A DNA stretch of 26,410 nt from a virus, in the IMG/VR virus record IMGVR_UViG_3300049483_000059, positions 1-26,410 of that record, one strand, 5' to 3'. This document shows positions 1 to 26,410 of this stretch, in pieces. Below the pieces are notes generated by a model, which did not search any database, had not been told where the DNA came from, and saw only the letters and a program-made list of their open reading frames with translations. Both the position numbers and the translations under genes were made by a program. Every line of letters begins with the position of its first letter. Position 1 is the stretch's first letter.

Positions 1-175
1 GTTCTAATTTATTTTCAATTTCAATTTCATTATCATTTGTTTGTATCTGTGCAATTCTTGCAATAAGTTCACAAGTAAAATATTTTTTATTCTGGTCATA
101 TGCCAGCCATTCCGTCCATTGTGTGAAAGGATCGAATGGATTATCCATAGTTGTTAACAAACCTTTCTTATCCAT
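1..175 (-). CDS. Small conserved-looking phage protein, C-terminus beyond the window
   Basis: The gene starts at an ATG whose first bases overlap the stop of the RNA polymerase-like gene (TAATG), with an AAGGTGAG ribosome site 5-6 nt upstream, so translation is probably coupled. The 58 visible codons run off the left edge without a stop. The visible protein starts MDKKGLLTTMDNPFDPFTQW and goes on through WLAYDQNKKYF to an acidic, Asn/Glu/Ile-rich end. No catalytic motif or membrane segment is visible. The Asn-Pro-Phe-x-Pro-Phe...Trp...Tyr-Asp opening resembles small phage proteins of unknown function that I recall from Gram-positive phages, but I cannot name the family. No function is assigned. 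Confidence 0.8.
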   Translation of the reverse strand, partial: MDKKGLLTTMDNPFDPFTQWTEWLAYDQNKKYFTCELIARIAQIQTNDNEIEIENKLE

Positions 176-2892
176 TACTCACCTTGATTGATACGCACAA
201 CAGAGCTAACAGAAATCCCTAAAATACTAGCAATTTCATTGTATGTGTAATCACCACTTAACAACAATTGTTTAGCACGTTGTTTAACATTATTAGGAAT
301 TTCTCTTGCTGACTTAGGCATAAAGCGATCACGAATTTCTTGCCCAGTCAGTGCTAGTAATATGGTATTTATAATATTGCTTGACACAGCACCAGTTTCA
401 ATTGCCAACCACTCATCCTCACTCAGGTGGATGGGAGGTCGTTCTGCTTTGACCATCATGCGAGCTGTAACAACAGCATAACCTTTTTGTTTCTTTAACT
501 TATCTTTGTTTGATTTAAGATTTGGATCTTTAAGTTTAGCTTCATCGATAAGTCTATTAGCTAGCGTCATAGCTCGACGTTCATGTGGTTTTGCTTGAAG
601 AATAAGTTGAACCTTAGCAATTAAACTGTCAACAGCAGACTTCATTGCTTCTTTAGCACGGGGATCCATCTTTTGGGTTGGTATGTTTACTGCTTCTGCT
701 CTAGCCTTGTTAGCCATAGCCTTAAGAGCATTAGCATAGTTCCCGTATATGTTCTCCATATAGGTCCCACTGCTTAGATCTAGTGCATTCTTAGTCTCGT
801 CCATTAGTGTGGACTGCTGCTGTGCAGGGATGATACGATCTACTGGGTTCCCATCCTTGTCTAGATCTTTAAAGCGATACTTCCTGTTGGATGGTATATG
901 GGATAGTTCTCCAGTTACTTTGTCAATGATAGAACGTTTACGCTCATCGACCCAGACTGTGGACTTTGCACGTGATATTAATGTACTAGATCCACCCCCA
1001 TCTTGATACTTATCTTTTAGTTCTTGAATGCCGTGATCAATAGCAGATTGTTTGTAGTTCAGCTTGTGTTTCTCTGCATCAATAACGACCATCGAATGTC
1101 GTACAGCTCTAACAATTTCAGGTAGACTTGCTTTACGCAATGTCATATCTGTAATTAAATTAGAAACAATACCCATCTCAATTTGTTTTCTGTGTTCTGA
1201 TATGACAGGCATCCCCTCAAAATGCGGATATGAGGCCTTATTATCAAAGTTCAGAAGAGCTGGGATAGCTTGTTCTGTTCGGATAGCACCACCCCTATTT
1301 GGTATAAGGATAACACTATCCCCATCGAAGTCAGCCCCTGATAATATCTTAGCGACATTGGCGTTAATACCAACAGCATCACGAGCCATGCCTGTTGTGT
1401 CAACACCCTTCCCCAATATTCGTCTGGCATCGCGGTTCCTATTGTTTACTACTAACTCTGGGATCTCGAACTTACCACCATGAGGATGACGTATTAATAC
1501 AACACGTTCGCCATCTTTATATTTAGGTGCATAAACTTCGTTATCTCGTAACGAATTAATAGGAATAATAATCGCCTGCGTTTGCCCAGGCATTGGGGAT
1601 GCTTTCAGTTCACGGGCAGCAGTATCGGCTGATTCTGCAAAATTCAGTAATAGATGCCGACGTACTTCTCCGTTACCCACCCCCCGTATTTCTTTTAGTT
1701 TCTCTTCTTGATGAGCGAGCGCAAGTCCTAGCTGTTGTTTAGCTAGTTCGCTGGGTTGCTTAGATAAGAACTGACTTGACAAACGGTTAGCCCATTCATC
1801 CCAGTCCCCTTCCTCCGCAACAATATTAATCGGAGAGAGTTTAGTTTTACCCCCCTCCTCATATTCAGCTTGTCTTCTGATGTGAGCACCGAATGGGTTT
1901 CCCGGTTCATCTTTCAGTTTTTTCATAGCTTCATATGGACCTTTAGCTCGGTCTTTTGATGTATTATATCGTACATCAATTCCTGGTGGTAAATCGTCGC
2001 TATATACAGCAACGCCTTTCATAAAATGATTTGGCCCAACTTGTATACGAACTTGTGCATAGTGATTAGCGCCAAGTGATAAATCTTTTTTGCCTGGTCT
2101 AATCTCTATCAAGCCATCTTTTGTTTTGCCTTCATCATCTGAGTAAGTAAACTGTACACGATCAATGTCGAGCGGAACAGGGGGCTTAATCTGATTGTAA
2201 GTCATCCCCCCAGTTGTGCTGTACTGAATGGGAGTTCCGATTTCATAACGATGTGCGATCAGATCCCCCTTGGTAACATCTTTCGGTAGTAATACTTTGT
2301 ATTTTGTCAAATGTCCTGTTCCAGGCTGTTTAATCTTGATGTACTCAATATGTGCACCCTCCCGCTTTAAGTTCTCAATAGCTAGATCTAGCTTCGAGCG
2401 AGTGATGCCAAATTGTGTTTCAACACCTAGACCTACATCCAGATATACACGTTCTTTCAGAGATGTACGAAGAGCTTCAGTAGTCTGCTCAAGAACCTGA
2501 AACTGACGGTCTGTCCGAGGTTTCAGCCAACCTCGCACTGTTGAAGAAGGAACCTTCATGCGCTTAGCGATATTTTCTTCACTGAATCCGCGTTCACGCA
2601 ATCGATTAGCCATGGATACGTTGGCTGCTATCTTAGATTGTTTGTTGAGACTTAGAATGTTTCTTAGACCAGTAACATTCGTGCCAAGATCTGCTGCTAT
2701 TTCAGGCTGTGAATAGCCCTTAGATTTAAAGTAACTAACTGCAGCAGAAAAATTCTCTTCAGAGCTAAACGGATCTTCCACTTCGCCCCAAGGGAGTTTA
2801 CCCTCACGACGAAGACGCTGATAAGGAACCAGTCCAGTCCCCCATGGCTGTCTGCCAGATCGTTCTCTGACACCACTGTGTTTTATCGTCAT
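175..2892 (-). CDS. Single-chain DxDGD (YonO-like) DNA-dependent RNA polymerase
   Basis: This 905-residue protein probably transcribes phage genes as a single-chain polymerase distantly related to the two large subunits of cellular RNA polymerase. The diagnostic feature is GADFDGD at residues 519-525. D521, D523 and D525 match the metal-binding triad of the beta-prime double-psi barrel, and the preceding GVGIN-like loop and following hydrophobic strand fit this class. Three helix-turn-helix-like segments are visible: about 58-80 (SQPEIAADLGTNVTGLR), about 103-124 (SEENIAKRMKVPSSTVRGW) and about 882-902 (YNEIASILGISVSSVVR). They could contact promoter DNA. Databases often label relatives 'RNA-dependent RNA polymerase', after the related eukaryotic QDE-1 fold; DNA-dependent activity is known for SPbeta YonO. 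The start ATG overlaps the upstream nuclease stop (ATGA). It is last of the replication genes before the small gene at the left edge. Template and promoter choice cannot be read from the sequence. Confidence 0.85.
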   Translation of the reverse strand: MTIKHSGVRERSGRQPWGTGLVPYQRLRREGKLPWGEVEDPFSSEENFSAAVSYFKSKGYSQPEIAADLGTNVTGLRNILSLNKQSKIAANVSMANRLRERGFSEENIAKRMKVPSSTVRGWLKPRTDRQFQVLEQTTEALRTSLKERVYLDVGLGVETQFGITRSKLDLAIENLKREGAHIEYIKIKQPGTGHLTKYKVLLPKDVTKGDLIAHRYEIGTPIQYSTTGGMTYNQIKPPVPLDIDRVQFTYSDDEGKTKDGLIEIRPGKKDLSLGANHYAQVRIQVGPNHFMKGVAVYSDDLPPGIDVRYNTSKDRAKGPYEAMKKLKDEPGNPFGAHIRRQAEYEEGGKTKLSPINIVAEEGDWDEWANRLSSQFLSKQPSELAKQQLGLALAHQEEKLKEIRGVGNGEVRRHLLLNFAESADTAARELKASPMPGQTQAIIIPINSLRDNEVYAPKYKDGERVVLIRHPHGGKFEIPELVVNNRNRDARRILGKGVDTTGMARDAVGINANVAKILSGADFDGDSVILIPNRGGAIRTEQAIPALLNFDNKASYPHFEGMPVISEHRKQIEMGIVSNLITDMTLRKASLPEIVRAVRHSMVVIDAEKHKLNYKQSAIDHGIQELKDKYQDGGGSSTLISRAKSTVWVDERKRSIIDKVTGELSHIPSNRKYRFKDLDKDGNPVDRIIPAQQQSTLMDETKNALDLSSGTYMENIYGNYANALKAMANKARAEAVNIPTQKMDPRAKEAMKSAVDSLIAKVQLILQAKPHERRAMTLANRLIDEAKLKDPNLKSNKDKLKKQKGYAVVTARMMVKAERPPIHLSEDEWLAIETGAVSSNIINTILLALTGQEIRDRFMPKSAREIPNNVKQRAKQLLLSGDYTYNEIASILGISVSSVVRINQGE

Positions 2893-3443
2893 AGATCATC
2901 TTCCTTCATTAGGATACTCACACTTTCAACGATCCTGACCATTATTCTTTTAACAGCCTCTGGTTCAGGGTTGGCGATATCGACATCTACGCCATGATAC
3001 AAGCGCAGATCAAACTTAATTGTTTCTGGATCTACCATATACTGCAAGCAAAACAATGCCGCATACAGCATAACTTGCAGCATATTACCACCAGAGTCGC
3101 CAGTCTTGAGATCAAAAATTCTTAGCCACTCCCCGTCAAATGCAATCGAATCACATGTTCCGTAACAATACGGACTGTGAAACAAGACTATCTCAGTATC
3201 CATTCGATAGCCTATAGAGTCGTTAATATAAGCATTTATAGCTTGTTTGTCTCTGGGCATATGAACGCCTAGACGTATTAGTTTAGCTGCCACATCATGG
3301 AGCTCTGAACCACGCGCAGCCGAACGATGATTCTTGTAGGTACGCTTTAACTTTTCAACATCATAAGCCAGCCAGTGATACTTACTGGGGCTTAAGAAGG
3401 CGTGCCCGTCTCCGAGCCTCTGATATTTGAGATCGAATTTCAC
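2889..3443 (-). CDS. PD-(D/E)XK nuclease, Cas4/RecB-like
   Basis: A 184-residue probable DNA exonuclease or endonuclease of the Cas4/RecB nuclease type. The catalytic series is in order: H49 (GSELHD), D98 (GTCDSI), D111-L-K113 (IFDLKTG) and Q123 in the QVMLYA helix. These match the His, Asp, (D/E)xK and Gln-x(3)-Tyr signatures of the family. There is no Cys cluster, so an iron-sulfur site as in true Cas4 is unlikely. The start is GTG with AGAGG 6 nt upstream. It overlaps the VRR-NUC-like gene by 62 nt in another frame, and its stop overlaps the polymerase start (ATGA), so the three genes are tightly coupled. Likely role: processing of replication or recombination intermediates, or host DNA breakdown. 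Confidence 0.82.
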   Translation of the reverse strand: MKFDLKYQRLGDGHAFLSPSKYHWLAYDVEKLKRTYKNHRSAARGSELHDVAAKLIRLGVHMPRDKQAINAYINDSIGYRMDTEIVLFHSPYCYGTCDSIAFDGEWLRIFDLKTGDSGGNMLQVMLYAALFCLQYMVDPETIKFDLRLYHGVDVDIANPEPEAVKRIMVRIVESVSILMKEDDL

Positions 3444-3723
3444 TTAAAACCTCTTCGCTGTTTTGTGGGGAAACGAACACGCCGTTCTTTGAGACATAGT
3501 GCGTTTGATTCGGACGCCTGGAAGATCGTCTAGTTCGTTTGAATTCAAGATCTTTCCAGTACAGAGCGCCGTCGTCAAACAAACAATTGATGGTAACATC
3601 AGGTATTCCCTGTGTTTCTTGAGGATTATTCGTAGTTATTCGGCACGCACCGCTGTATTCACTTAGCAATTGTGCAAGAAATTTTTTCTTAAATGTTTTT
3701 TCTAACGGAATTTTGTATGGCAT
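3382..3723 (-). CDS. VRR-NUC-like PD-(D/E)XK nuclease
   Basis: I place the start at the ATG at 3723 (113 residues), not at an upstream in-frame codon, because GAGG lies 9 nt before it. The protein has the small VRR-NUC pattern: a basic N-terminus (FKKKFLAQLL), GIPD with D42, then E60-F-K62 (DLEFKR) and Q73 (RRPNQTHYV). Stand-alone VRR-NUC proteins of about this length are common in phage replication modules and act on branched or double-stranded DNA. The gene follows a roughly 440-nt non-coding stretch holding a large RNA-like structure, and its ribosome site can pair with the 3' closing strand of that structure (see 3732-3784). The last 62 nt encode the start of the next nuclease in another frame. 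The family call is good; the substrate is unknown. Confidence 0.78.
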   Translation of the reverse strand: MPYKIPLEKTFKKKFLAQLLSEYSGACRITTNNPQETQGIPDVTINCLFDDGALYWKDLEFKRTRRSSRRPNQTHYVSKNGVFVSPQNSEEVLSEIRSQISEARRRARLLKPQ

Positions 3724-3731
3724 TTTATTTT

Positions 3732-3784
3732 CCTCAAAGAAAAAAATATAACATGTTGTGATCATTTGAGAGAGCTATGAGATA
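3732..3784 (-). promoter_or_regulatory. Possible ribosome-site sequestration for the VRR-NUC gene
   Basis: On the minus strand the Shine-Dalgarno of the VRR-NUC-like gene is inside UUUGAGG (plus 3732-3738). The 3' closing strand of the upstream structured RNA contains UCUCAAA (plus 3765-3771). These can form six Watson-Crick pairs plus one U-G pair and would hide the ribosome site. The same UCUCAAA bases are used in the 21-bp closing helix of the structured RNA, so the two pairings exclude each other. This is inferred from complementarity. The 21-bp helix is far stronger, so something would have to open it, such as protein binding, cleavage or a new transcript start. Confidence 0.35.
3741..3760 (-). 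promoter_or_regulatory. Weak copy of the phage promoter-like element
   Basis: On the minus strand AACATGTTATATTTT aligns with AACATGGTATATAGT of the element at 4145-4170, sharing AACATG and TATAT. It lies just before the ribosome site of the VRR-NUC-like gene and could give that gene its own short leader without the structured RNA. The upstream AAAAT half of the element is poorly kept and the region is AT-rich, so chance similarity is a real alternative. Confidence 0.22.
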
Positions 3785-4079
3785 GGGACTGCGTTCTGTA
3801 TTACCAAGTGCCGAAAACCATGACGGAAACGGCGGATGACAATAAGAAACAATGCTGCAAACAGGATCCAGACAAAGCTGGAACCAGGGCTCAACGTCTT
3901 AAACGCGGTTAAGCGCGACGGAGCGACTCAAGCCTCAAGCACCGAAGTGACGACCAGCGAGCCAAGGCAGCTGGTAGGGCGAGTAATAACCAATAAGGTT
4001 TAGGCGAAGTCAAAAAGCCAGGGGGGTGGCTCGACAGACGCACAGGCAGCGAACAGTATATCTCATAACTCTCTCAAAT
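3764..4079 (-). ncRNA. Candidate large structured phage RNA, about 316 nt, unknown class
   Basis: No ORF is supported here. A 21-bp inverted repeat closes the region: on the minus strand UUUGAGAGAGUUAUGAGAUA (4078-4059) pairs along its whole length with UAUCUCAUAGCUCUCUCAAA (3784-3765), plus one more pair outside. One position is U-G on the minus strand but C-A on the plus strand. Inside, on the minus strand, are AGCCA/UGGCU around a C6 loop, AACC/GGUU, ACCAGC/GCUGGU, CACUUCGGUG (a C(UUCG)G tetraloop), CGCG/CGCG enclosed by GGCUU/GAGCC, UCCAG/CUGGA, and GCCG/CGGC. ACUG/CAGU can extend the closing helix. The interior looks richer in G+C than its flanks. A promoter-like element lies about 65 nt upstream. 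I see no tRNA, group I core or familiar riboswitch core. Alternatives are a structured leader of the nuclease gene or a replication origin. Confidence 0.6.
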
Positions 4080-4144: not shown

Positions 4145-4170
4145 CTTCTACTATATACCATGTTATTTTA
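4145..4170 (-). promoter_or_regulatory. Phage promoter-like element, copy 1, upstream of the structured RNA
   Basis: The minus strand begins TAAAATAACATGG and ends TATATAGTAGAAG, the same 26-nt pattern as the copies at 13398, 15331, 17027 and 17559. The -10 hexamer would be TATAGT (4155-4150), placing the start near 4143. No -35 hexamer is evident. The TAA stop of the SF2 helicase gene lies inside the element. The nearest thing downstream is the structured RNA, not an ORF. Confidence 0.6.
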
Positions 4171-5341
4171 AAAAACGACGTTCGTTGAAATTCTTTTTGT
4201 TTGCTAGTGCCATGAGTATACACAGGTCTATTTCACTACGAGTTTTGAATGTGTAGTAATATAATGAAGAGAACGGACTATCCATGCGGTCTATTCGGCC
4301 AGCAGCTTGTATCATCGCTCTATAAGAGTAGTTCATGCTCCAGAATACTACCGTGTCAGTAGTCGTGCAGTTCCATGCTTCAGCTCCAGCAGCGTACTGA
4401 ACGAGATAGATCCACTCTTCTGATGTCGGAATCGGTTCATGCATGTGACCATTGTATTCAGCTATCTCGCATTCCATGTTGGCTTTTATATATTCTAGTT
4501 CATAGTCGAAGTTATAGAATACTATGAGCTTACGATGTTTTTCAACCAAATGGTGCAACTGTGCGATTCGTCCCGGAGTTATGTTCCCGACCTTGCGCAT
4601 TAGATAACAGGCCTCGGACGCATTCTTTACAGGCTCATCAGTCCATGGATTCCATCTATCTTTTGCAATGGTTTCGTATGTCTTTTCGTCGTATTCGGTT
4701 TCAATGTGTATGTAGTGCTTAAGTTTATCTTCTCCATAATTTGGAATTGGAACTAATAACTTGTCCCTGTAATACTCTAACTTCGGTATGTTGTTGTATC
4801 TTATTATTTTTGGAAAGTTTAAGTATTGATGATACACTACATGCTCAAGCACGAAACTCCTACGTGATTCATAGAATCCATTAGCCAGGAACATCGGTAC
4901 GTAATCGATCCAAACATCGCCAGGAGTAGCTGTAAGCAGAATAAACTGATTAGACTTAGTCACTTTAAGAAATGACTTAACCCAGGCTCCAGATCCTACG
5001 ATTCGTTGTTCGTCAAACAAAAAGAAAGCGTTCTTTACTTTGTCATACTTGTGGAGATTATTCCACGAGTCGACAGTTACTTTCACGTTCTTCTGCATTT
5101 CTATTAGCAGCCAGCTGAGTTCTTTATCCCATTCGTGTTTATCGCGTTTAGCTGCTGGCGTGATGATATATAGGTCCATGGGATTTTTGAACGGTGTACG
5201 TTCGAACTCAACTCCGCCGCACTTGCGAACATAATAAACCAGTGAGGTCAAGGATTTCCCTGACCCCACTGTTCCGTACAATATTGAGCCATTGTGCAGC
5301 TTGTCAATAGCCTCTAGCTGACCCTGCTTAAGCGTGACCAT
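4163..5341 (-). CDS. SF2 DNA helicase / ATPase
   Basis: A 392-residue superfamily 2 helicase that probably unwinds or remodels DNA during phage replication. Visible motifs: Q-like KQGQLEAI (5-12), Walker A GTVGSGKS (23-30), a variant Walker B FLFDEQR (107-113, usually DEAH/DEAD), motif III LLTATP (135-140), and motif VI QAAGRIDR (345-352) with both arginines. The C-terminal RecA-like half around VFYNF and VVFWS supports a complete two-domain core with no large accessory domain. The ATG overlaps the end of the ssDNA-binding-like gene by 14 nt and I see no strong ribosome site, so translational coupling is likely. Small helicases with D-E-x-x and QxxGRxDR motifs are common beside polymerase, SSB and VRR-NUC genes in Gram-positive phages. 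The exact substrate is unknown. Confidence 0.85.
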   Translation of the reverse strand: MVTLKQGQLEAIDKLHNGSILYGTVGSGKSLTSLVYYVRKCGGVEFERTPFKNPMDLYIITPAAKRDKHEWDKELSWLLIEMQKNVKVTVDSWNNLHKYDKVKNAFFLFDEQRIVGSGAWVKSFLKVTKSNQFILLTATPGDVWIDYVPMFLANGFYESRRSFVLEHVVYHQYLNFPKIIRYNNIPKLEYYRDKLLVPIPNYGEDKLKHYIHIETEYDEKTYETIAKDRWNPWTDEPVKNASEACYLMRKVGNITPGRIAQLHHLVEKHRKLIVFYNFDYELEYIKANMECEIAEYNGHMHEPIPTSEEWIYLVQYAAGAEAWNCTTTDTVVFWSMNYSYRAMIQAAGRIDRMDSPFSSLYYYTFKTRSEIDLCILMALANKKNFNERRFLK

Positions 5342-9546: not shown

Positions 9547-10082
9547 CGCTCCTCCTCTTGTTCGATCAAATATGCGTTCATTTGGAACCAGATTTCTACA
9601 CGTCGTTGATCTTCAGCGGGATGCTTTAGTGGAAACAATAGTCCGTGCATGCCATATTTCCGTTTTATTACTTTTTGCAGAATATTGTAAACGTCTGCAT
9701 CGATTCTATCTGTATCTATATACTGACTATCTGGTATACATATACCTAAATTTTCCAATAGTTCGAAAAAATATGATGGTATGTTGTCTTCGCGGGATGT
9801 TATTTCGCCCATGTCATAAGCTAACTGTATTAGCAGCTCTAACATAGATATTCGTTCTTCCCCGAAGTCATCAGCGTAAGATATATGATACGTTCTGAAA
9901 AATTCTCTACGCAAATCCAGCGCGTATGACACTCGATTAGCATCGAGCGGTACTCTATCATCCGCCTGGAACTTCGTTCTGTCTAAGGCTCTGAACAAAC
10001 ATAGAAAAGTCTGCCCTGGCCGGGCGGATTCGACCAGGGCAAACAACCAGTCCAGATACAATCTTCTTGTACTGGCTAACAC
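9534..10082 (-). CDS. Unknown protein translated just ahead of the DNA polymerase
   Basis: A 182-residue soluble protein that I do not recognise. It starts at GTG with GGAG about 10 nt upstream and begins 7 nt after the previous stop. It ends inside the first codons of the polymerase gene, whose strong ribosome site lies in the tail of this ORF, so the two are made together. The sequence is mainly helical with many aromatic and charged residues: RRLYLDWLFALV near the start, LDLRREFFRTYHISYADDFG around 55-75, and an acidic tail with LIEQEEERW. No nucleotide-binding loop, zinc site or membrane segment is visible. Position suggests a replication accessory role, which is inference only. Confidence 0.75.
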   Translation of the reverse strand: MLASTRRLYLDWLFALVESARPGQTFLCLFRALDRTKFQADDRVPLDANRVSYALDLRREFFRTYHISYADDFGEERISMLELLIQLAYDMGEITSREDNIPSYFFELLENLGICIPDSQYIDTDRIDADVYNILQKVIKRKYGMHGLLFPLKHPAEDQRRVEIWFQMNAYLIEQEEERWTS

Positions 10083-10089
10083 GGCTTTT

Positions 10090-10665
10090 CTACTCCCCGG
10101 TTTTTACAGGGGAAACTTTCTTATGCGGATTCCCACCGCCAGTCATACCCGGAGTTTCTCCACGTAATGAAGAGAATGTTGAGGTTACTGCTTTGGTGCT
10201 GTTCGTCGTTGAAACCGGCTTTGCAGCAGGCTCTTTTAACGCTGCCATATGCTCACCCGCGGTTAAGGGCTGGACAGGTTGAGTGGTCTTAACTGGTTTC
10301 GCATATTTGGTCTTAGGCGCGATCTTAGACGTAACCGATTTCTTGACTTCCTCGAAGGATTCTGAATCGATTGTCCCTGTGATGGTGACTCCGTCTTTGT
10401 CCATAGCCAGCGATGTAACCTGAGCGATTGGCGTGCCGTCGTGCTTGAACGGGATAGGCTGGTTGAGTTCTTCTCGCAGCAAAGCCTGTTCGGGAGTGTC
10501 GTACGGCGGGATCATTTCATATTCGACTTCGGGGAAGAGATATGGTTCCACGGTCTTTGCGATCGCAAAACCAACAGCGCCGCCAACAACCAGGCCGATG
10601 GCTATTCTCTGCACACGTTTGTTCTTCGCGAATTCAATCGCGGTCTTAATTATTTCTTGCGGCAT
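10090..10665 (-). CDS. Single-TM protein with long Thr/Pro/Lys-rich tail
   Basis: I choose the ATG at 10665 (191 residues) because AAGGAG lies 7 nt upstream; an upstream in-frame ATG lacks one. A basic amphipathic N-terminus (IEFAKNKRVQR) is followed by a Gly-rich membrane segment IAIGLVVGGAVGFAIAK at about 21-38. A 'YEMIPPYDTPEQALLREELN' stretch comes next. The C-terminal half is low-complexity and rich in Lys, Pro, Thr and Ser. A C-terminal soluble tail of about 150 residues is therefore expected. Membrane topology cannot be settled by eye. The start overlaps the end of the upstream small gene by 20 nt. No family is recognised. Confidence 0.78.
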   Translation of the reverse strand: MPQEIIKTAIEFAKNKRVQRIAIGLVVGGAVGFAIAKTVEPYLFPEVEYEMIPPYDTPEQALLREELNQPIPFKHDGTPIAQVTSLAMDKDGVTITGTIDSESFEEVKKSVTSKIAPKTKYAKPVKTTQPVQPLTAGEHMAALKEPAAKPVSTTNSTKAVTSTFSSLRGETPGMTGGGNPHKKVSPVKTGE

Positions 10666-11377: not shown

Positions 11378-12253
11378 TCAAATGAGCTTGAAAACAACGC
11401 CCATGACGTTCGATTCAATCATTACTTCCGAGGGGGCGAAACCCGAAACCGTTCGCACTGGGAACAGCACGATATGAGCATCCGGGTGATTGGCATCGCG
11501 GACCCATCCGACTACCTGGCCAACATCTGTGCGCCGGACATCGAACTGATCATGGAGTTCATTCAGGAACACATGGCCGCGCCCGACAAGCAACTGGTTT
11601 AGATAGCGTTCGACCTGCTGGATGTGGAATGCATTGGCTGCCTGGTCGTGTTCGCGATAGTGACAAGAGAACTTGTCCCAGACGAATCCAAAGCCGGTGC
11701 CGGTGCTCTTAATCTTTTCCGGTTGCAGACCAAGTTCTGTCAGGTCTTTTTCCAGTTGACCGTTCACATCCTCAGCGAATGTATGGGCAGGAAGTGTTGC
11801 GCCCTTGCCATCTTCATCGGCGACAGCACCAGGGAAAGCTGCAAGAATTCCACCAGTTCGTTCGCGGTACTGGTTAAAAGCTTGCGTCACTGAAGTCAAA
11901 GCTGCGGCTGTTGCGGCATACCGACCGTTCAGGATCCTGTATGAAGCGGCTGCACAAGCTGCACTGACTAACGCACCTGCGACCATCGGAATTGCTGGCT
12001 TGGCGAGATCACGAAGAGTCCCCATGATGATTTCTTCACGGGCTTTCTTGTCGTTCGGACCGGGATTTTCCTTGAGATCGATGAGTGCAACCCGAGCATT
12101 GCGGATCGTTCCATCGCGCTCAATTTTCTGACCGTACTTCACGCCCTGGTACAGCGCAAATCCGCCAGCCAGAATACTCAAACCAAGAAAGATTTCTGGT
12201 GAGCGCTGCTTGGCGAACAGTCCTACTTTTGCTGCATAATTGTTTATGTCCAT
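11378..12253 (-). CDS. DUF6353-like two-TM phage membrane protein, paralogue 1
   Basis: A 291-residue membrane protein of unknown role. The start has AAGGA about 7 nt upstream. Visible order: N-terminus with RSPEIFLGLSILAGGFALYQ (first membrane segment, about 17-38), a charged loop with KARE, a second membrane segment about 86-107 (AIPMVAGALVSAACAAASYR), a helical AATAAALTSVTQAFNQYRER stretch, then a soluble domain to the end. The SPEI...TM...TM...YR pattern and C-terminal 'LGW/VGW...DA...PV' beta region fit DUF6353-like proteins of Gram-positive phages. The gene at 13421-14071 has the same plan. Function is unknown. A membrane-bound host-takeover or superinfection role would be a guess. Confidence 0.72.
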   Translation of the reverse strand: MDINNYAAKVGLFAKQRSPEIFLGLSILAGGFALYQGVKYGQKIERDGTIRNARVALIDLKENPGPNDKKAREEIIMGTLRDLAKPAIPMVAGALVSAACAAASYRILNGRYAATAAALTSVTQAFNQYRERTGGILAAFPGAVADEDGKGATLPAHTFAEDVNGQLEKDLTELGLQPEKIKSTGTGFGFVWDKFSCHYREHDQAANAFHIQQVERYLNQLLVGRGHVFLNELHDQFDVRRTDVGQVVGWVRDANHPDAHIVLFPVRTVSGFAPSEVMIESNVMGVVFKLI

Positions 12254-13397: not shown

Positions 13398-13423
13398 GTT
13401 CTATTATATGCCCTGTTATTTTA
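13398..13423 (-). promoter_or_regulatory. Phage promoter-like element, copy 2
   Basis: On the minus strand it begins TAAAATAACAGGG and ends CATATAATAGAAC, matching the 17027 copy at all 26 positions. TATAAT is a perfect -10. There is no visible -35. The first three bases are the TAA stop of the 216-residue gene. The leader to the next start is about 45 nt, with no G until the ribosome site. The next three genes (56, 98 and 190 residues) are probable targets. Confidence 0.75.
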
Positions 13424-14071
13424 GTGCATGTACTTGGGCAAAGGATTAACAGAAAGCACCACAACAGGATATGTTTCGTCTTTTAGACGCGTGGAAAGAT
13501 TAAAGACGATTGGTCCGTCTGTCCAACCAAGTTGGCTGCCTCCGCTGATGTGCTGTAAACCTAATTCATCGCAGAAGTCATCCATTGTGGCCATCATATG
13601 GTTGATAACCTGGTAGTTCAGAGCTTGACATACTTTGTGGATTTTTTCAACGCTTGCCACAAAGGATTGCCCTGTTGTGTTGTCCAGACAGTAGGTATTT
13701 GGTTGAACAAGTAATTCAGATCCAGCAGGTACTTTGAATTCGTTGTCAACCTTTTCTTGAAGAATACGAGCTTCAGCATCCACTAGAACCTTTTCAGGTA
13801 TAGATTTCTGCAGATCCTTGAGAGCCCCTCGGGTCATATCATAGGCTCCCATCAATGCGTCGAATCTGCGAGCATCTCGTACGTTAGTGATGACGAGGAT
13901 TCCAGTGGCTACTGTGAACAGAGTTAAAGCAGGCGCGTAAGCCATAGCGTGTTCCCGTACATTGCCTTCTACAGGCTTATTATTCAGCCGTCGAGTGGCT
14001 AATACAGCACTGACGACCGAACCAGCATACAGTCCGATCGACAGCGCTAACATGGCTTTAGAGGTTTGCAT
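13421..14071 (-). CDS. DUF6353-like two-TM phage membrane protein, paralogue 2
   Basis: A 216-residue membrane protein with the same plan as the 291-residue gene at 11378. A first membrane segment lies at about 5-25 (KAMLALSIGLYAGSVVSAVL) and a second at about 45-63 (AYAPALTLFTVATGILVITN). A helical DARRFDALMGAYDMTRGAL region and a soluble beta-rich end follow. The end has LGWTDGPIVFNLS and PVVVLSVNPLPKY, close to the DUF6353 C-terminal pattern (L-G-W-x-D-G then a final P-x-P-x-Y). The start overlaps the previous gene by 14 nt; the ribosome site is weak (AAGAGA). Function unknown. Confidence 0.75.
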   Translation of the reverse strand: MQTSKAMLALSIGLYAGSVVSAVLATRRLNNKPVEGNVREHAMAYAPALTLFTVATGILVITNVRDARRFDALMGAYDMTRGALKDLQKSIPEKVLVDAEARILQEKVDNEFKVPAGSELLVQPNTYCLDNTTGQSFVASVEKIHKVCQALNYQVINHMMATMDDFCDELGLQHISGGSQLGWTDGPIVFNLSTRLKDETYPVVVLSVNPLPKYMH

Positions 14072-15158: not shown

Positions 15159-15274
15159 GTATATCTCCTTAGTCATGATAGGATATGGTCTCGTTTTTAA
15201 TCGAGTCGGTACGGACATTATTGCCGTGCGATATATGGTATTTTATTTCTTCTTGTTTCCTCCGTAGAAATTAG

Positions 15275-15338
15275 AAAAAAAATAGAATCCCATGATGAGC
15301 TCAAGCGGGTTGCGAGCTTCGAATCGTGGGGTTCTATT
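15275..15338 (-). terminator. Hairpin/T-tract overlapping a promoter; possible short RNA
   Basis: On the minus strand AATAGAACCCCA (15338-15327) can pair with TGGGATTCTATT (15292-15281) with one wobble. AGCTC/GAGCT nests inside, and a run of eight T follows at 15282-15275. The 5' arm overlaps the -10 region of the promoter-like element at 15331. Readthrough from upstream would make the full terminator stem. Initiation at the element would make a short RNA of roughly 50-60 nt, or an attenuated leader for the 172-residue gene. Confidence 0.6.
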
Positions 15339-15356
15339 ATATGCCCTGTTATTTTC
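15331..15356 (-). promoter_or_regulatory. Phage promoter-like element, copy 3
   Basis: Identical to copy 2 except for the first base: on the minus strand GAAAATAACAGGG, then CATATAATAGAAC. TATAAT lies at 15341-15336. It sits immediately downstream of the terminator at 15361-15389, the usual place for a fresh start. No -35 is visible. Unlike the other copies it runs directly into a hairpin with a T-tract. Confidence 0.72.
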
Positions 15357-17026: not shown

Positions 17027-17052
17027 GTTCTATTATATGCCCTGTTATTTTA
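17027..17052 (-). promoter_or_regulatory. Phage promoter-like element, copy 4
   Basis: On the minus strand it begins TAAAATAACAGGG and ends CATATAATAGAAC, identical over 26 nt to copy 2. TATAAT is the -10. It lies directly downstream of the terminator at 17060 and about 40 nt before the ATG of the 74-residue gene. The leader has no G between AGAACC and the GGAG ribosome site. Confidence 0.77.
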
Positions 17053-17558: not shown

Positions 17559-17584
17559 GTTCTATTATATCCCATGTTATATTA
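17559..17584 (-). promoter_or_regulatory. Phage promoter-like element, copy 5
   Basis: On the minus strand it begins TAATATAACATGG and ends GATATAATAGAAC, differing from copy 2 at three or four positions but keeping TATAATAGAAC. It lies 32 nt after the holin-like gene and about 50 nt before the 132-residue gene. The leader is C/A-rich with only two G before the ribosome site. It opens the small-gene region downstream of the lysis genes. Confidence 0.7.
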
Positions 17585-24592: not shown

Positions 24593-25401
24593 TACAGACC
24601 TCCATAGTTTGATTGATATGTTACTGCAAGCCCAGTGTTAGGAACCCCTGTAGCTTCTATCTCATTGTCACCCGGATCTATCTGGATCCAAGTGTAGGGC
24701 AACGTTACTGCTGAGAAAATGTTATGCCTGGTATTTTGAGAGATCAACTCGCAGGATTTTATGTCGCCTGTTTTGAGAAGTATCTGACTATCTGCTGGGA
24801 CAGGATCTAATAATGCGGCAAGTTTGGTCATACTTATTTTCATTGACGTATTATTTTCATTGTTCTTTATAGTTAACGTTCCTGTGGTTGGAGATCCAGT
24901 AAGTGTAAGAGCTATATTGCATCCGCAAGATACATCACCATCATTGGTAAAACCAACAGTGTCACCCCCAATGAGATTTGTAAGTGTTTTAGATGAAGAT
25001 AAAAACTCCGACTTAGGACATATTATTGTCACAACCATTATAGATTCCTTAACGAAAACAGGATTATTGCAGGATTCAACAACCCCGGATATTTCTCGGT
25101 AGGTAACTTCGCTTGTCTTGAACACAAGTTTCACGCTGTTCCCTGCCCTGAACACGGTCATCAAAGTTGCTCGTCTTTCTTCCACATTTGTATCTGTGAT
25201 TCGTATCGACATAACTATGATACGTTGTTTTGGTGCTACACTGGAAATTACGGTCCTGGTGTTCAGTTTATCTACCGTAATTTCTCTACTATCTTCAGCG
25301 ATACCAGTAATATCGAATATGAGTGCCCCATCAGATTCTGAAGCACTCATATCCAATACACACTGGTAACTGCCCGAGTAAGCAGTTACTTTTTCTAACA
25401 C
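24592..25401 (-). CDS. Distal tail protein (Dit-like)
   Basis: A 269-residue protein in the normal position of the distal tail protein, directly after the tape measure gene and before the Gp37-like tail protein. The N-terminal 135 residues look like the Dit tail-tube-like domain: VLDMSASESDGALIFDITGI, KLNTRTVISSVAPKQRIIVM, VEERRATLMTVFRAGNSVKL and CPKSEF. The second half (GDVSCGCNIALTLTG, then TGTLTIKN and an end with TWIQIDPGDNEIEA) is a galectin-like beta sandwich by pattern. Such proteins form the hexameric hub joining tail tube and tip. Start is GTG with AGGAG 6-7 nt upstream. Confidence 0.8.
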   Translation of the reverse strand: MLEKVTAYSGSYQCVLDMSASESDGALIFDITGIAEDSREITVDKLNTRTVISSVAPKQRIIVMSIRITDTNVEERRATLMTVFRAGNSVKLVFKTSEVTYREISGVVESCNNPVFVKESIMVVTIICPKSEFLSSSKTLTNLIGGDTVGFTNDGDVSCGCNIALTLTGSPTTGTLTIKNNENNTSMKISMTKLAALLDPVPADSQILLKTGDIKSCELISQNTRHNIFSAVTLPYTWIQIDPGDNEIEATGVPNTGLAVTYQSNYGGL

Positions 25402-25403
25402 AT

Positions 25404-26410
25404 TTATCTCCTATTTTGCCCGATTAAGCTAGCAGTGCGTCGCGCTACTTCCTCAACGGAAAGTGGTGACGGAGAAGTATTATACTGATTGTAGACAGTT
25501 TGTGGTCCTCTTAAATCCGGAGAGGTTAAACCCACAGGGCTGGAATACAAACTATGTCCAGGCGTTAAACCTAGATCAAACTGCTTCGGCCCGAAGGCGC
25601 TAGAAATTGTTTTTTCGATTGCAGACATGGCACTCATGTCCAACACTGGAGACAGCACAGGCTGGAAATTAAGATTGCTCGATAGGGATCCATCCATAAA
25701 GCTTAACATAGCGTCTTTGACTGTGTCTAACTTTTTGGTTATCATTGACGGATCAAGACCATTAACTAGGCCTTGCATGTAATAGTCAGAGATCTCAAAT
25801 GCTTTCTTAGATGGAGAGTGTTCGTCGAGACCCTTGCGGAACTTATCGAGCAGAATACCGACGATCATGCCAACTGCATTCCCCAAGTTAAGCAATCCTA
25901 ATGGATCCAGAAGTCCGATAACTATTCCAGTTACCACGTACTTTCCGATAGCTGCAAAATCTTTGAGTCTGTCTATTGTCTCTTTGCCCATTTGTGACGC
26001 AATATACTGAGTCAACCAGGTTGCGCCTTTATCTAGTTCATCCGAAGATTCTACTAATCCATCGAGAACAAACTTGATCATTGCCTTGGCCAGACGGCGA
26101 AGTTGGGCTCTAAGTTTACCGCCATCTTTTTCGATCGTATCAGCTAATGCTGAAATAACATTTATAAAGTAATTGTACACCGCATCAACAAGTGGTCCAA
26201 CGCCTTTAGCTGCTGAATTAACAAACTTTGTTAATATACTGGTCCATAAAGTTACATAAGTACCAATATTTTTTTCTAGATGCATCAGGGACCGCAAGAA
26301 CCACTTAGCGATAAGAGGATATACTGTTTCGGCTATTTTGTCTAGAGCCTTGAAAACCTCAACGAAAACAGTAGCAAATGCTGAGGAAATCCACGGGGCT
26401 GCGTCTATAA
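25404..26410 (-). CDS. Tape measure protein, C-terminal part (gene continues right of window)
   Basis: The frame stays open to the right edge: upstream of an apparent TTG at 26297 it reads on as IDAAPWISSAFATVFVEVFK, so the true start is outside the window and TTG is not the start. Visible are about 335 residues of long helical sequence with hydrophobic segments (IGKYVVTGIVIGLLDPLGLL, NAVGMIVGILL), the hallmark GLDEHSPSK of tape measure C-termini, and a Ser/Pro-rich end. The protein sets tail length and probably helps DNA pass the membrane. Tail genes follow immediately. Confidence 0.88.
   Translation of the reverse strand, partial: IDAAPWISSAFATVFVEVFKALDKIAETVYPLIAKWFLRSLMHLEKNIGTYVTLWTSILTKFVNSAAKGVGPLVDAVYNYFINVISALADTIEKDGGKLRAQLRRLAKAMIKFVLDGLVESSDELDKGATWLTQYIASQMGKETIDRLKDFAAIGKYVVTGIVIGLLDPLGLLNLGNAVGMIVGILLDKFRKGLDEHSPSKKAFEISDYYMQGLVNGLDPSMITKKLDTVKDAMLSFMDGSLSSNLNFQPVLSPVLDMSAMSAIEKTISSAFGPKQFDLGLTPGHSLYSSPVGLTSPDLRGPQTVYNQYNTSPSPLSVEEVARRTASLIGQNRR

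What the first reader, a model, noticed from the sequence alone, without database searches (positions are those of the whole stretch)
3764..4079. Candidate new 316-nt structured phage RNA between helicase and VRR-NUC genes
Seen: a 21-bp inverted repeat closes a non-coding, hairpin-dense region with no ORF. Strand clues agree on the minus strand: one closing pair is U-G there but C-A on the plus strand, one internal hairpin is a C(UUCG)G tetraloop only on the minus strand, and a promoter-like element sits upstream. At least seven internal stems can be drawn. Inferred: a large ornate phage RNA of a class I do not recognise, in the spirit of ROOL or GOLLD but shorter. It may be abundant or act in replication or translation control.
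Basis: partly seen in the sequence, partly recalled or inferred. Interest (0 to 1): 0.92.

Follow-up and report, generated by a model that had tools for sequence, protein, structure and literature searches.

The report
New structured RNA in two phages
Two related phages, seen only as environmental sequence fragments, carry the same elaborately folded RNA of about 300 letters next to their replication genes; it matches no known RNA family and evolution has clearly kept its shape, but what it does is not known.

Summary
Minus-strand 4079-3764 folds into a closed, multi-branched RNA, the strongest of 84 windows tested, with no Rfam match. A second phage contig (L006) has a 295-nt homologue in the same place, between the helicase and VRR-NUC genes. 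Between the two, 8-12 base pairs changed on both sides. In 16 curated helices every one-sided change is G.U on the minus strand. The paired-alignment fold has SCI 0.84, z -9.8. RNA-specific tetraloops sit on that strand. The RNA is 72.5% identical with a 39-nt unchanged run; four-fold sites of four neighbouring genes are only 41-57% identical. It is an RNA under selection, not coding, not chance.

No third member was found in about 340 loci searched with a core covariance model; phages with ~50% identical helicases lack it. It lies just downstream of a promoter-like element shared across this phage family, as leader of the VRR-NUC / Cas4-like exonuclease / YonO-like RNA polymerase genes. I favour an autonomously folded RNA made from that promoter and acting as a free, probably processed, RNA; a cis-acting leader is the main rival. 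Function is inferred, not shown.

The parts
3764..4079 (-). Structured RNA domain, 316 nt (homologue L006:6243-6537, 295 nt)
4059..4079 (-). P1 5' arm, 21 nt, pairs with 3764-3784; 4 pairs changed on both sides and 2 on one side (both G.U) against L006; 2 outermost pairs broken in L006
3764..3784 (-). P1 3' arm
4046..4057 (-). 5' strands of P2 (ACUGU, 4057-4053) and P3 (GCUGC, 4050-4046); partners 3792-3788 and 3858-3854; invariant in both phages
4003..4044 (-). P4 hairpin arm; variable, its lower stem only weakly supported
3988..4000 (-). P5, AACC/GGUU; loop UUAUU here, UUCG in L006 (misaligned in A2, aligned by hand)
3926..3984 (-). P6 with two hairpins: P6a (3975-3953; 2 pairs changed on both sides) and P6b (3949-3940, C(UUCG)G); lies largely in the most conserved part
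3889..3924 (-). P7, GCUC-CGUC/GACG-UU-GAGC; GCAA tetraloop in L006, extended by 14 nt here
3864..3885 (-). P8 hairpin, GG/CC and CCAG/CUGG
3793..3850 (-). P9 arm, ending in the invariant motif CCGUUUCCGUCAUGGUUUUCGG (3832-3811)
4149..4164 (-). Promoter-like element AACATGGTATATAGTA, identical in L006, overlapping the helicase stop codon
4081..4148 (-). Leader hairpin GAAGAGATAACCAA...TTGGATATCTTTTTC between promoter-like element and RNA (compact in L006, loop enlarged by 30 nt here)
3746..3757 (-). Second box AACATGTTATAT just after the RNA, present in both phages; possible promoter for VRR-NUC, untested
3382..3723 (-). VRR-NUC-like gene, first gene downstream; start codon 41 nt after the RNA (name from the annotation of the homologous actinophage genes; no Pfam hit of its own)
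2889..3443 (-). Cas4-like exonuclease (phrog_3953)
175..2892 (-). YonO-like single-chain RNA polymerase (phrog_4291, there named RNA-dependent RNA polymerase)
   Evidence: PMC5467207 for YonO
4163..5341 (-). DNA helicase (phrog_62), gene upstream

Best explanation
An unreported structured RNA of a small phage lineage. Shown by sequence: it is a conserved RNA fold on the minus strand, and it sits just downstream of a promoter-like element of the phage. Inferred: transcription from that element (by the phage's YonO-like RNA polymerase or the host's) makes a leader that carries a short 5' hairpin and then this domain ahead of the VRR-NUC, exonuclease and RNA polymerase genes. The domain folds on its own; its 19-21 bp closing stem is long enough to be an RNase III substrate, so it is probably released as a stable RNA of about 300 nt that works in trans by offering its invariant loops (the 39-nt core around P6/P7 and the P9 tip) to a protein or nucleic acid. 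The partner is unknown.
For: Homologue in the same place with 8 pairs changed on both sides in the curated list and 12 in the automatic count, against 6.1 in shuffles and 0/500 reaching it; SCI 0.84, z -9.8. Strand: 7 G.U and 0 A.C cells in the curated helices; C(UUCG)G and GNRA loops on the minus strand; better plus/minus scores. Selection: 72.5% identity and a 39-nt identical run against 41-57% at four-fold sites of helicase, exonuclease, polymerase and RNAP genes. Non-coding: indels of 1, 1, 2, 14 and 1 nt and stops in every frame. Autonomy: in folds of the whole leader the 5' hairpin, the domain and the VRR-NUC start region do not compete in either phage. Promoter-like element in the right place and orientation.
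Against: No transcript data. Nothing found here separates a free RNA from a leader that stays attached. No intrinsic terminator was found right after the RNA, and only 41 nt separate it from the VRR-NUC start, so much of it could simply be 5' UTR. Cleavage by RNase III is an inference from stem length alone. Only two members, so covariation rests on one comparison.
Confidence: 0.42

Rival explanations
1. A cis-acting leader: the RNA stays in the 5' UTR and acts on the transcribing polymerase or the ribosome, for example as an antitermination or polymerase-modifying element (as put RNA of phage HK022 does; own knowledge) or as a stabiliser or regulator of the VRR-NUC-exonuclease-RNAP mRNA.
For: Same orientation as, and 41 nt upstream of, the first gene of that run; preceded by a promoter-like element followed by a hairpin with a U run that resembles a terminator; the downstream run includes the phage's own RNA polymerase.
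Against: No conserved alternative pairing with the ribosome-binding site or a terminator was seen in the leader folds of the two phages. Relatives with the same gene order do without it. A second promoter-like box after the RNA could serve the genes independently.
Confidence: 0.33
2. A DNA-level element, such as part of the replication origin, extruding a cruciform; the pairing is kept for DNA.
For: Several relatives carry long nested inverted repeats and iteron-like repeats in the interval between helicase and VRR-NUC or just upstream of VRR-NUC; the neighbours are replication genes.
Against: One-sided changes are all G.U on one strand and none A.C; UUCG and GNRA loops on that strand; minus strand scores better in both single and paired folding; no iterons or AT-rich centre; no sequence match to those repeats.
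Confidence: 0.08
3. A non-autonomous mobile element (MITE-like) with 21-bp terminal inverted repeats.
For: Terminal inverted repeats around a non-coding centre; absent from more distant relatives.
Against: Single copy in each phage; no target-site duplication seen at the ends; arms co-evolve pair by pair at the same site in two phages; internal fold conserved too.
Confidence: 0.03
4. A diverged member of a known class (group I intron, retron ncRNA, ROOL, GOLLD, 6S, tmRNA and so on) that the models miss.
For: Covariance models can miss divergent members; the a1/a2-like closing stem recalls retron ncRNAs.
Against: No Rfam hit at E<=10 with permissive filters for either sequence beyond plainly spurious short ones; no tRNA or tmRNA in the window; no reverse transcriptase in either contig (both contigs may be incomplete).
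Confidence: 0.06

Closest known systems
ROOL and GOLLD RNAs (large ornate phage/prophage RNAs; PMC12286853)
   Same: Phage-encoded, non-coding, elaborately branched, function unknown.
   Different: No sequence or structure match in Rfam scans; 295-316 nt against 659 nt (the ROOL example) and more than 800 nt (many GOLLD); not beside tRNA genes (no tRNA in the window); multimer formation unknown.
Non-coding RNA at the head of the YonO-transcribed late operon of Bacillus phage SPbeta (PMC5467207)
   Same: Non-coding RNA in a phage with a YonO-like RNA polymerase, at the head of a run of genes in the phage's own transcription programme.
   Different: The SPbeta interval between yonN and yonK is 1.68 kb, holds an Rfam DUF3800-VIII hit (RF03075, E 9e-7) and has no match to the core model. 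No homology is claimed.
put RNA of phage HK022 (own knowledge)
   Same: Structured leader RNA near the start of a phage transcript; would be a model for the cis rival.
   Different: put elements are short (about 65 nt, two hairpins, own knowledge); no similarity was tested beyond Rfam, and no effect on the polymerase is known here.
Retron non-coding RNA (own knowledge)
   Same: Closed by a long inverted repeat.
   Different: No reverse transcriptase found in either contig; multi-branched core instead of msr/msd.

Membership tests
ROOL / GOLLD | Match to the family's Rfam covariance model | tested here: not met
   cmscan of the window and of both RNA regions, E<=5 and E<=10: no such hit
ROOL / GOLLD | Length of about 600 nt or more | tested here: not met
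   The closed domain is 316 nt here and 295 nt in L006; an unseen longer transcript is not excluded
ROOL / GOLLD | Location often near tRNA genes | tested here: not met
   No tRNA gene in the 26.4-kb window
ROOL / GOLLD | Ordered homo-oligomer or cage | not testable with these tools
   Needs native gels or cryo-EM
Retron ncRNA | Adjacent reverse transcriptase gene | tested here: not met
   No RVT_1 (PF00078) in either contig; the control search finds it in 3 of 14 reference genomes
Group I / group II intron | Match to the intron model (catalytic core) | tested here: not met
   No Rfam intron match at E<=10
Terminal-inverted-repeat mobile element (MITE) | More than one copy at different sites | tested here: not met
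   One copy in the window record and one in L006's contig; both records may be partial
Conserved structured RNA (general) | Covariation above control in homologues | tested here: met
   12 pairs changed on both sides, 0/500 shuffles as high; slid controls 1-5; z -9.8. Only two sequences
Conserved structured RNA (general) | Stable transcript of the right strand | not testable with these tools
   No transcriptome available

The most novel reading that the evidence does not exclude
The RNA is a dedicated partner of the phage's transcription or replication machinery, for example an RNA that binds and redirects the single-chain YonO-like RNA polymerase encoded two genes downstream, made from a promoter of a kind shared across these phages; it would be the first RNA regulator known for that polymerase type.
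Probability: 0.12. Interest if true: 0.88.

Novelty: new variant of a known kind. Interest (0 to 1): 0.6.

Why it matters
Few large structured RNAs of phages are known and the best described have no settled function. This one adds a separate, shorter class with covariation support, a defined gene neighbourhood and a candidate promoter, in phages that carry their own unusual RNA polymerase. Because it stands alone as one compact domain, it can be made in vitro, probed, and tested by deletion if a host is found. It also shows that near relatives do without it, which gives natural comparisons.

Tried and rejected
Further homologues: blastn of the RNA against phages and plasmids gave none. Six pattern scans of viral and genome contigs gave only L006's contig as a true match; matches are coding or fail the core model. 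The core model R1 was run on all fetched loci and on 25 whole records. L057 (23 bits, E 4.5e-4) was rejected: it was fetched by a pattern taken from P7, which supplies most of its score, P6 is missing and the rest is a terminator hairpin. Ungapped search for the conserved segments in about 100 family loci was no better than shuffled patterns. Large intergenic gaps at the same place in other phages turned out to be small ORFs, repeated promoter-hairpin units, or nested repeats, not this RNA. A conserved pseudoknot was looked for among unpaired segments and none of 4 bp or more with 2 G-C pairs was found. Folding in 160-nt windows does not single out the region, since it cuts the closing stem. 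A first 316-nt scan timed out and was repeated more coarsely. The first covariation call failed on a length error. The VRR comparison used a wrong frame and is ignored.

Full report
What was checked. The window is a complete 26,410-bp IMG/VR virus record. On its minus strand run a PolB-type DNA polymerase with primase parts (phrog_4210), a single-strand annealing protein, a helicase (phrog_62), a VRR-NUC-like gene, a Cas4-like exonuclease (phrog_3953) and a large protein of phrog_4291. That family is labelled RNA-dependent RNA polymerase; I take it for a YonO-like single-chain DNA-dependent RNA polymerase, because YonO of SPbeta, shown to be one (PMC5467207), belongs to the protein group long annotated that way. 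This assignment rests on the family label and on my own knowledge, not on a direct comparison made here.

The element itself. The 21-nt arms, the single U.G pair, the UUCG hairpin and the inner stems are all present. The minus strand folds at -112.4 kcal/mol, z -6.3, the plus strand at -104.8, z -4.8. Single-sequence folding alone is not decisive: two other 316-nt windows in coding sequence reach z -5.8 and -5.6.

The homologue. Searching with the helicase found IMGVR_UViG_3300045974_000391 (L006; helicase 84% identical), with a 295-nt homologue at L006:6243-6537 between the same two genes. On the plain MAFFT alignment A2 the consensus fold scores -90.3, SCI 0.84, z -9.8 against 200 column shuffles on the minus strand, and -72.5, SCI 0.71, z -7.0 on the plus strand. 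For the structure predicted from the window, 92% of cells pair, 12 pairs changed on both sides (shuffles 6.1, 0/500 as high) and slid controls give 1-5. Because that structure was predicted from one of the two sequences, the slid control favours it. A list of 16 helices curated by hand gives 62 unchanged, 5 one-sided, 8 two-sided and 2 broken pairs, the broken ones at the outer end of P1; G.U occurs 7 times and A.C never. P4's lower stem and the middle of P9 differ between the phages and are only loosely supported.

Selection and coding. The RNA is 72.5% identical over 298 aligned positions with a 39-nt identical run. Four-fold degenerate sites are 48% identical in the helicase gene, 57% in the exonuclease, 53% in the RNAP and 41% in the polymerase. 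Indels of 1, 1, 2, 14 and 1 nt and stops in each frame argue against coding. RNA rather than DNA is indicated by the G.U bias and by tetraloops: C(UUCG)G in P6b of both phages, in P5 and (in the consensus) P6a of L006, and GCAA in P7 of L006.

Distribution. A covariance model of the core (135 positions) finds the window and L006 and nothing else credible in about 340 loci and in 25 whole records. Among the 80 best helicase relatives (all about 47-55% identical), where VRR-NUC follows the helicase closely the gap is mostly 30-125 nt. The RNA is therefore a lineage-specific element as far as these collections show; the gap between 84% and 55% helicase identity is unsampled here, and metagenome contigs could not be searched.

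Surroundings. Just upstream of the RNA, overlapping the helicase stop codon, lies AACATGGTATATAGTA, one of 5 copies in the window and of 8 intergenic or gene-border copies in L006's contig, all on the coding strand (a ninth, one-mismatch match there lies inside the polymerase gene). A similar element, roughly TCGCG-N(2)-AAAAACA-N(4)-(C/T)TATAATAGAAG, lies upstream of VRR-NUC in many relatives: 25 of 78 loci match a 13-letter core fully, against 1 of 1560 shuffles. The loci are partly near-duplicates and the shuffles keep only base composition, so these numbers are indicative. In most it is followed at once by a hairpin and a U run; in the window and L006 such a hairpin lies between the element and the RNA. 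No sequenced transcript start supports the element as a promoter. The polymerase that would use it is unknown; PMC5467207 states that the promoter recognised by YonO was undetermined.

Mechanism. Shown: conserved RNA fold, strand, place. Inferred: transcription from the element; folding as an independent domain, supported by leader folds in which the three parts do not compete; release by RNase III at the 19-21 bp closing stem; action in trans. The main rival is a leader that stays attached and acts in cis. Nothing here decides between them; I put the free RNA slightly ahead because the closed domain is self-contained and shows no conserved link to the ribosome-binding site or to a terminator.

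Relation to the known. The comparison with ROOL and GOLLD is loose: no model match, less than half the length, no tRNA neighbourhood. Retron and intron readings fail on a missing reverse transcriptase and missing model matches. I therefore file it as a new class within the known kind of orphan structured phage RNAs.

Noticed in passing
window 4149-4164, 13402-13417, 15335-15350, 17031-17046, 17563-17578 (-); L240/L241; upstream of VRR-NUC in many loci of L004-L239: Family-wide promoter-like element (about TCGCGNNAAAAACANNNNYTATAATAGAAG), repeated in both phages, often right after a terminator, and upstream of VRR-NUC usually followed at once by a hairpin with a U run. Candidate promoter of the YonO-like polymerase, or a host promoter without a -35 box.
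   Followed up: partly
window 15256-15340 (-); same place in L006's contig (G003): Possible second small RNA of about 60 nt: promoter element, then a hairpin (UAGAACC.../...GGAUUCUA with an inner stem) ending in a U run, with no ORF; similar fold in both phages although the inner sequence differs.
   Followed up: partly
L199:7236-7637; L181 and L191, gap after helicase: The promoter-plus-hairpin unit upstream of VRR-NUC is repeated in tandem (3 copies in L199, 2 in L181 and L191), nearly letter for letter.
   Followed up: no
L010:3323-3975, L014, L020, L023, L024-L028, gaps upstream of VRR-NUC or after the helicase: Long nested inverted repeats and iteron-like repeats (such as AGTGGGCAG, GTGGCCA, CTGTCAAATC, GTGTACACTAGTGT) in many relatives; candidate replication origins.
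   Followed up: no
L243:9154-10834 (SPbeta, yonN to yonK): The 1.68-kb non-coding interval that precedes yonK, where the YonO transcript is reported to start with a non-coding RNA, holds a DUF3800-VIII RNA hit (RF03075, E 9.4e-7; PMC5467207).
   Followed up: partly
window 25201-25440 (-) and 9797-10112 (-): Unusually strong predicted folding inside coding sequence (z -5.5 to -6.2); not explained.
   Followed up: no
phage records NC_048876, NC_031224, NC_041948, NC_042042 and phrog_4291: Homologues of the YonO-like polymerase are annotated as RNA-dependent RNA polymerase or only as helix-turn-helix DNA-binding protein in about 250 phage records; probably misleading names.
   Followed up: no
window 13421-14071 and 11378-12253 (-): Two DUF6353 (PF19880) proteins in one phage, 1.2 kb apart, among small genes that follow the promoter element.
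   Followed up: no
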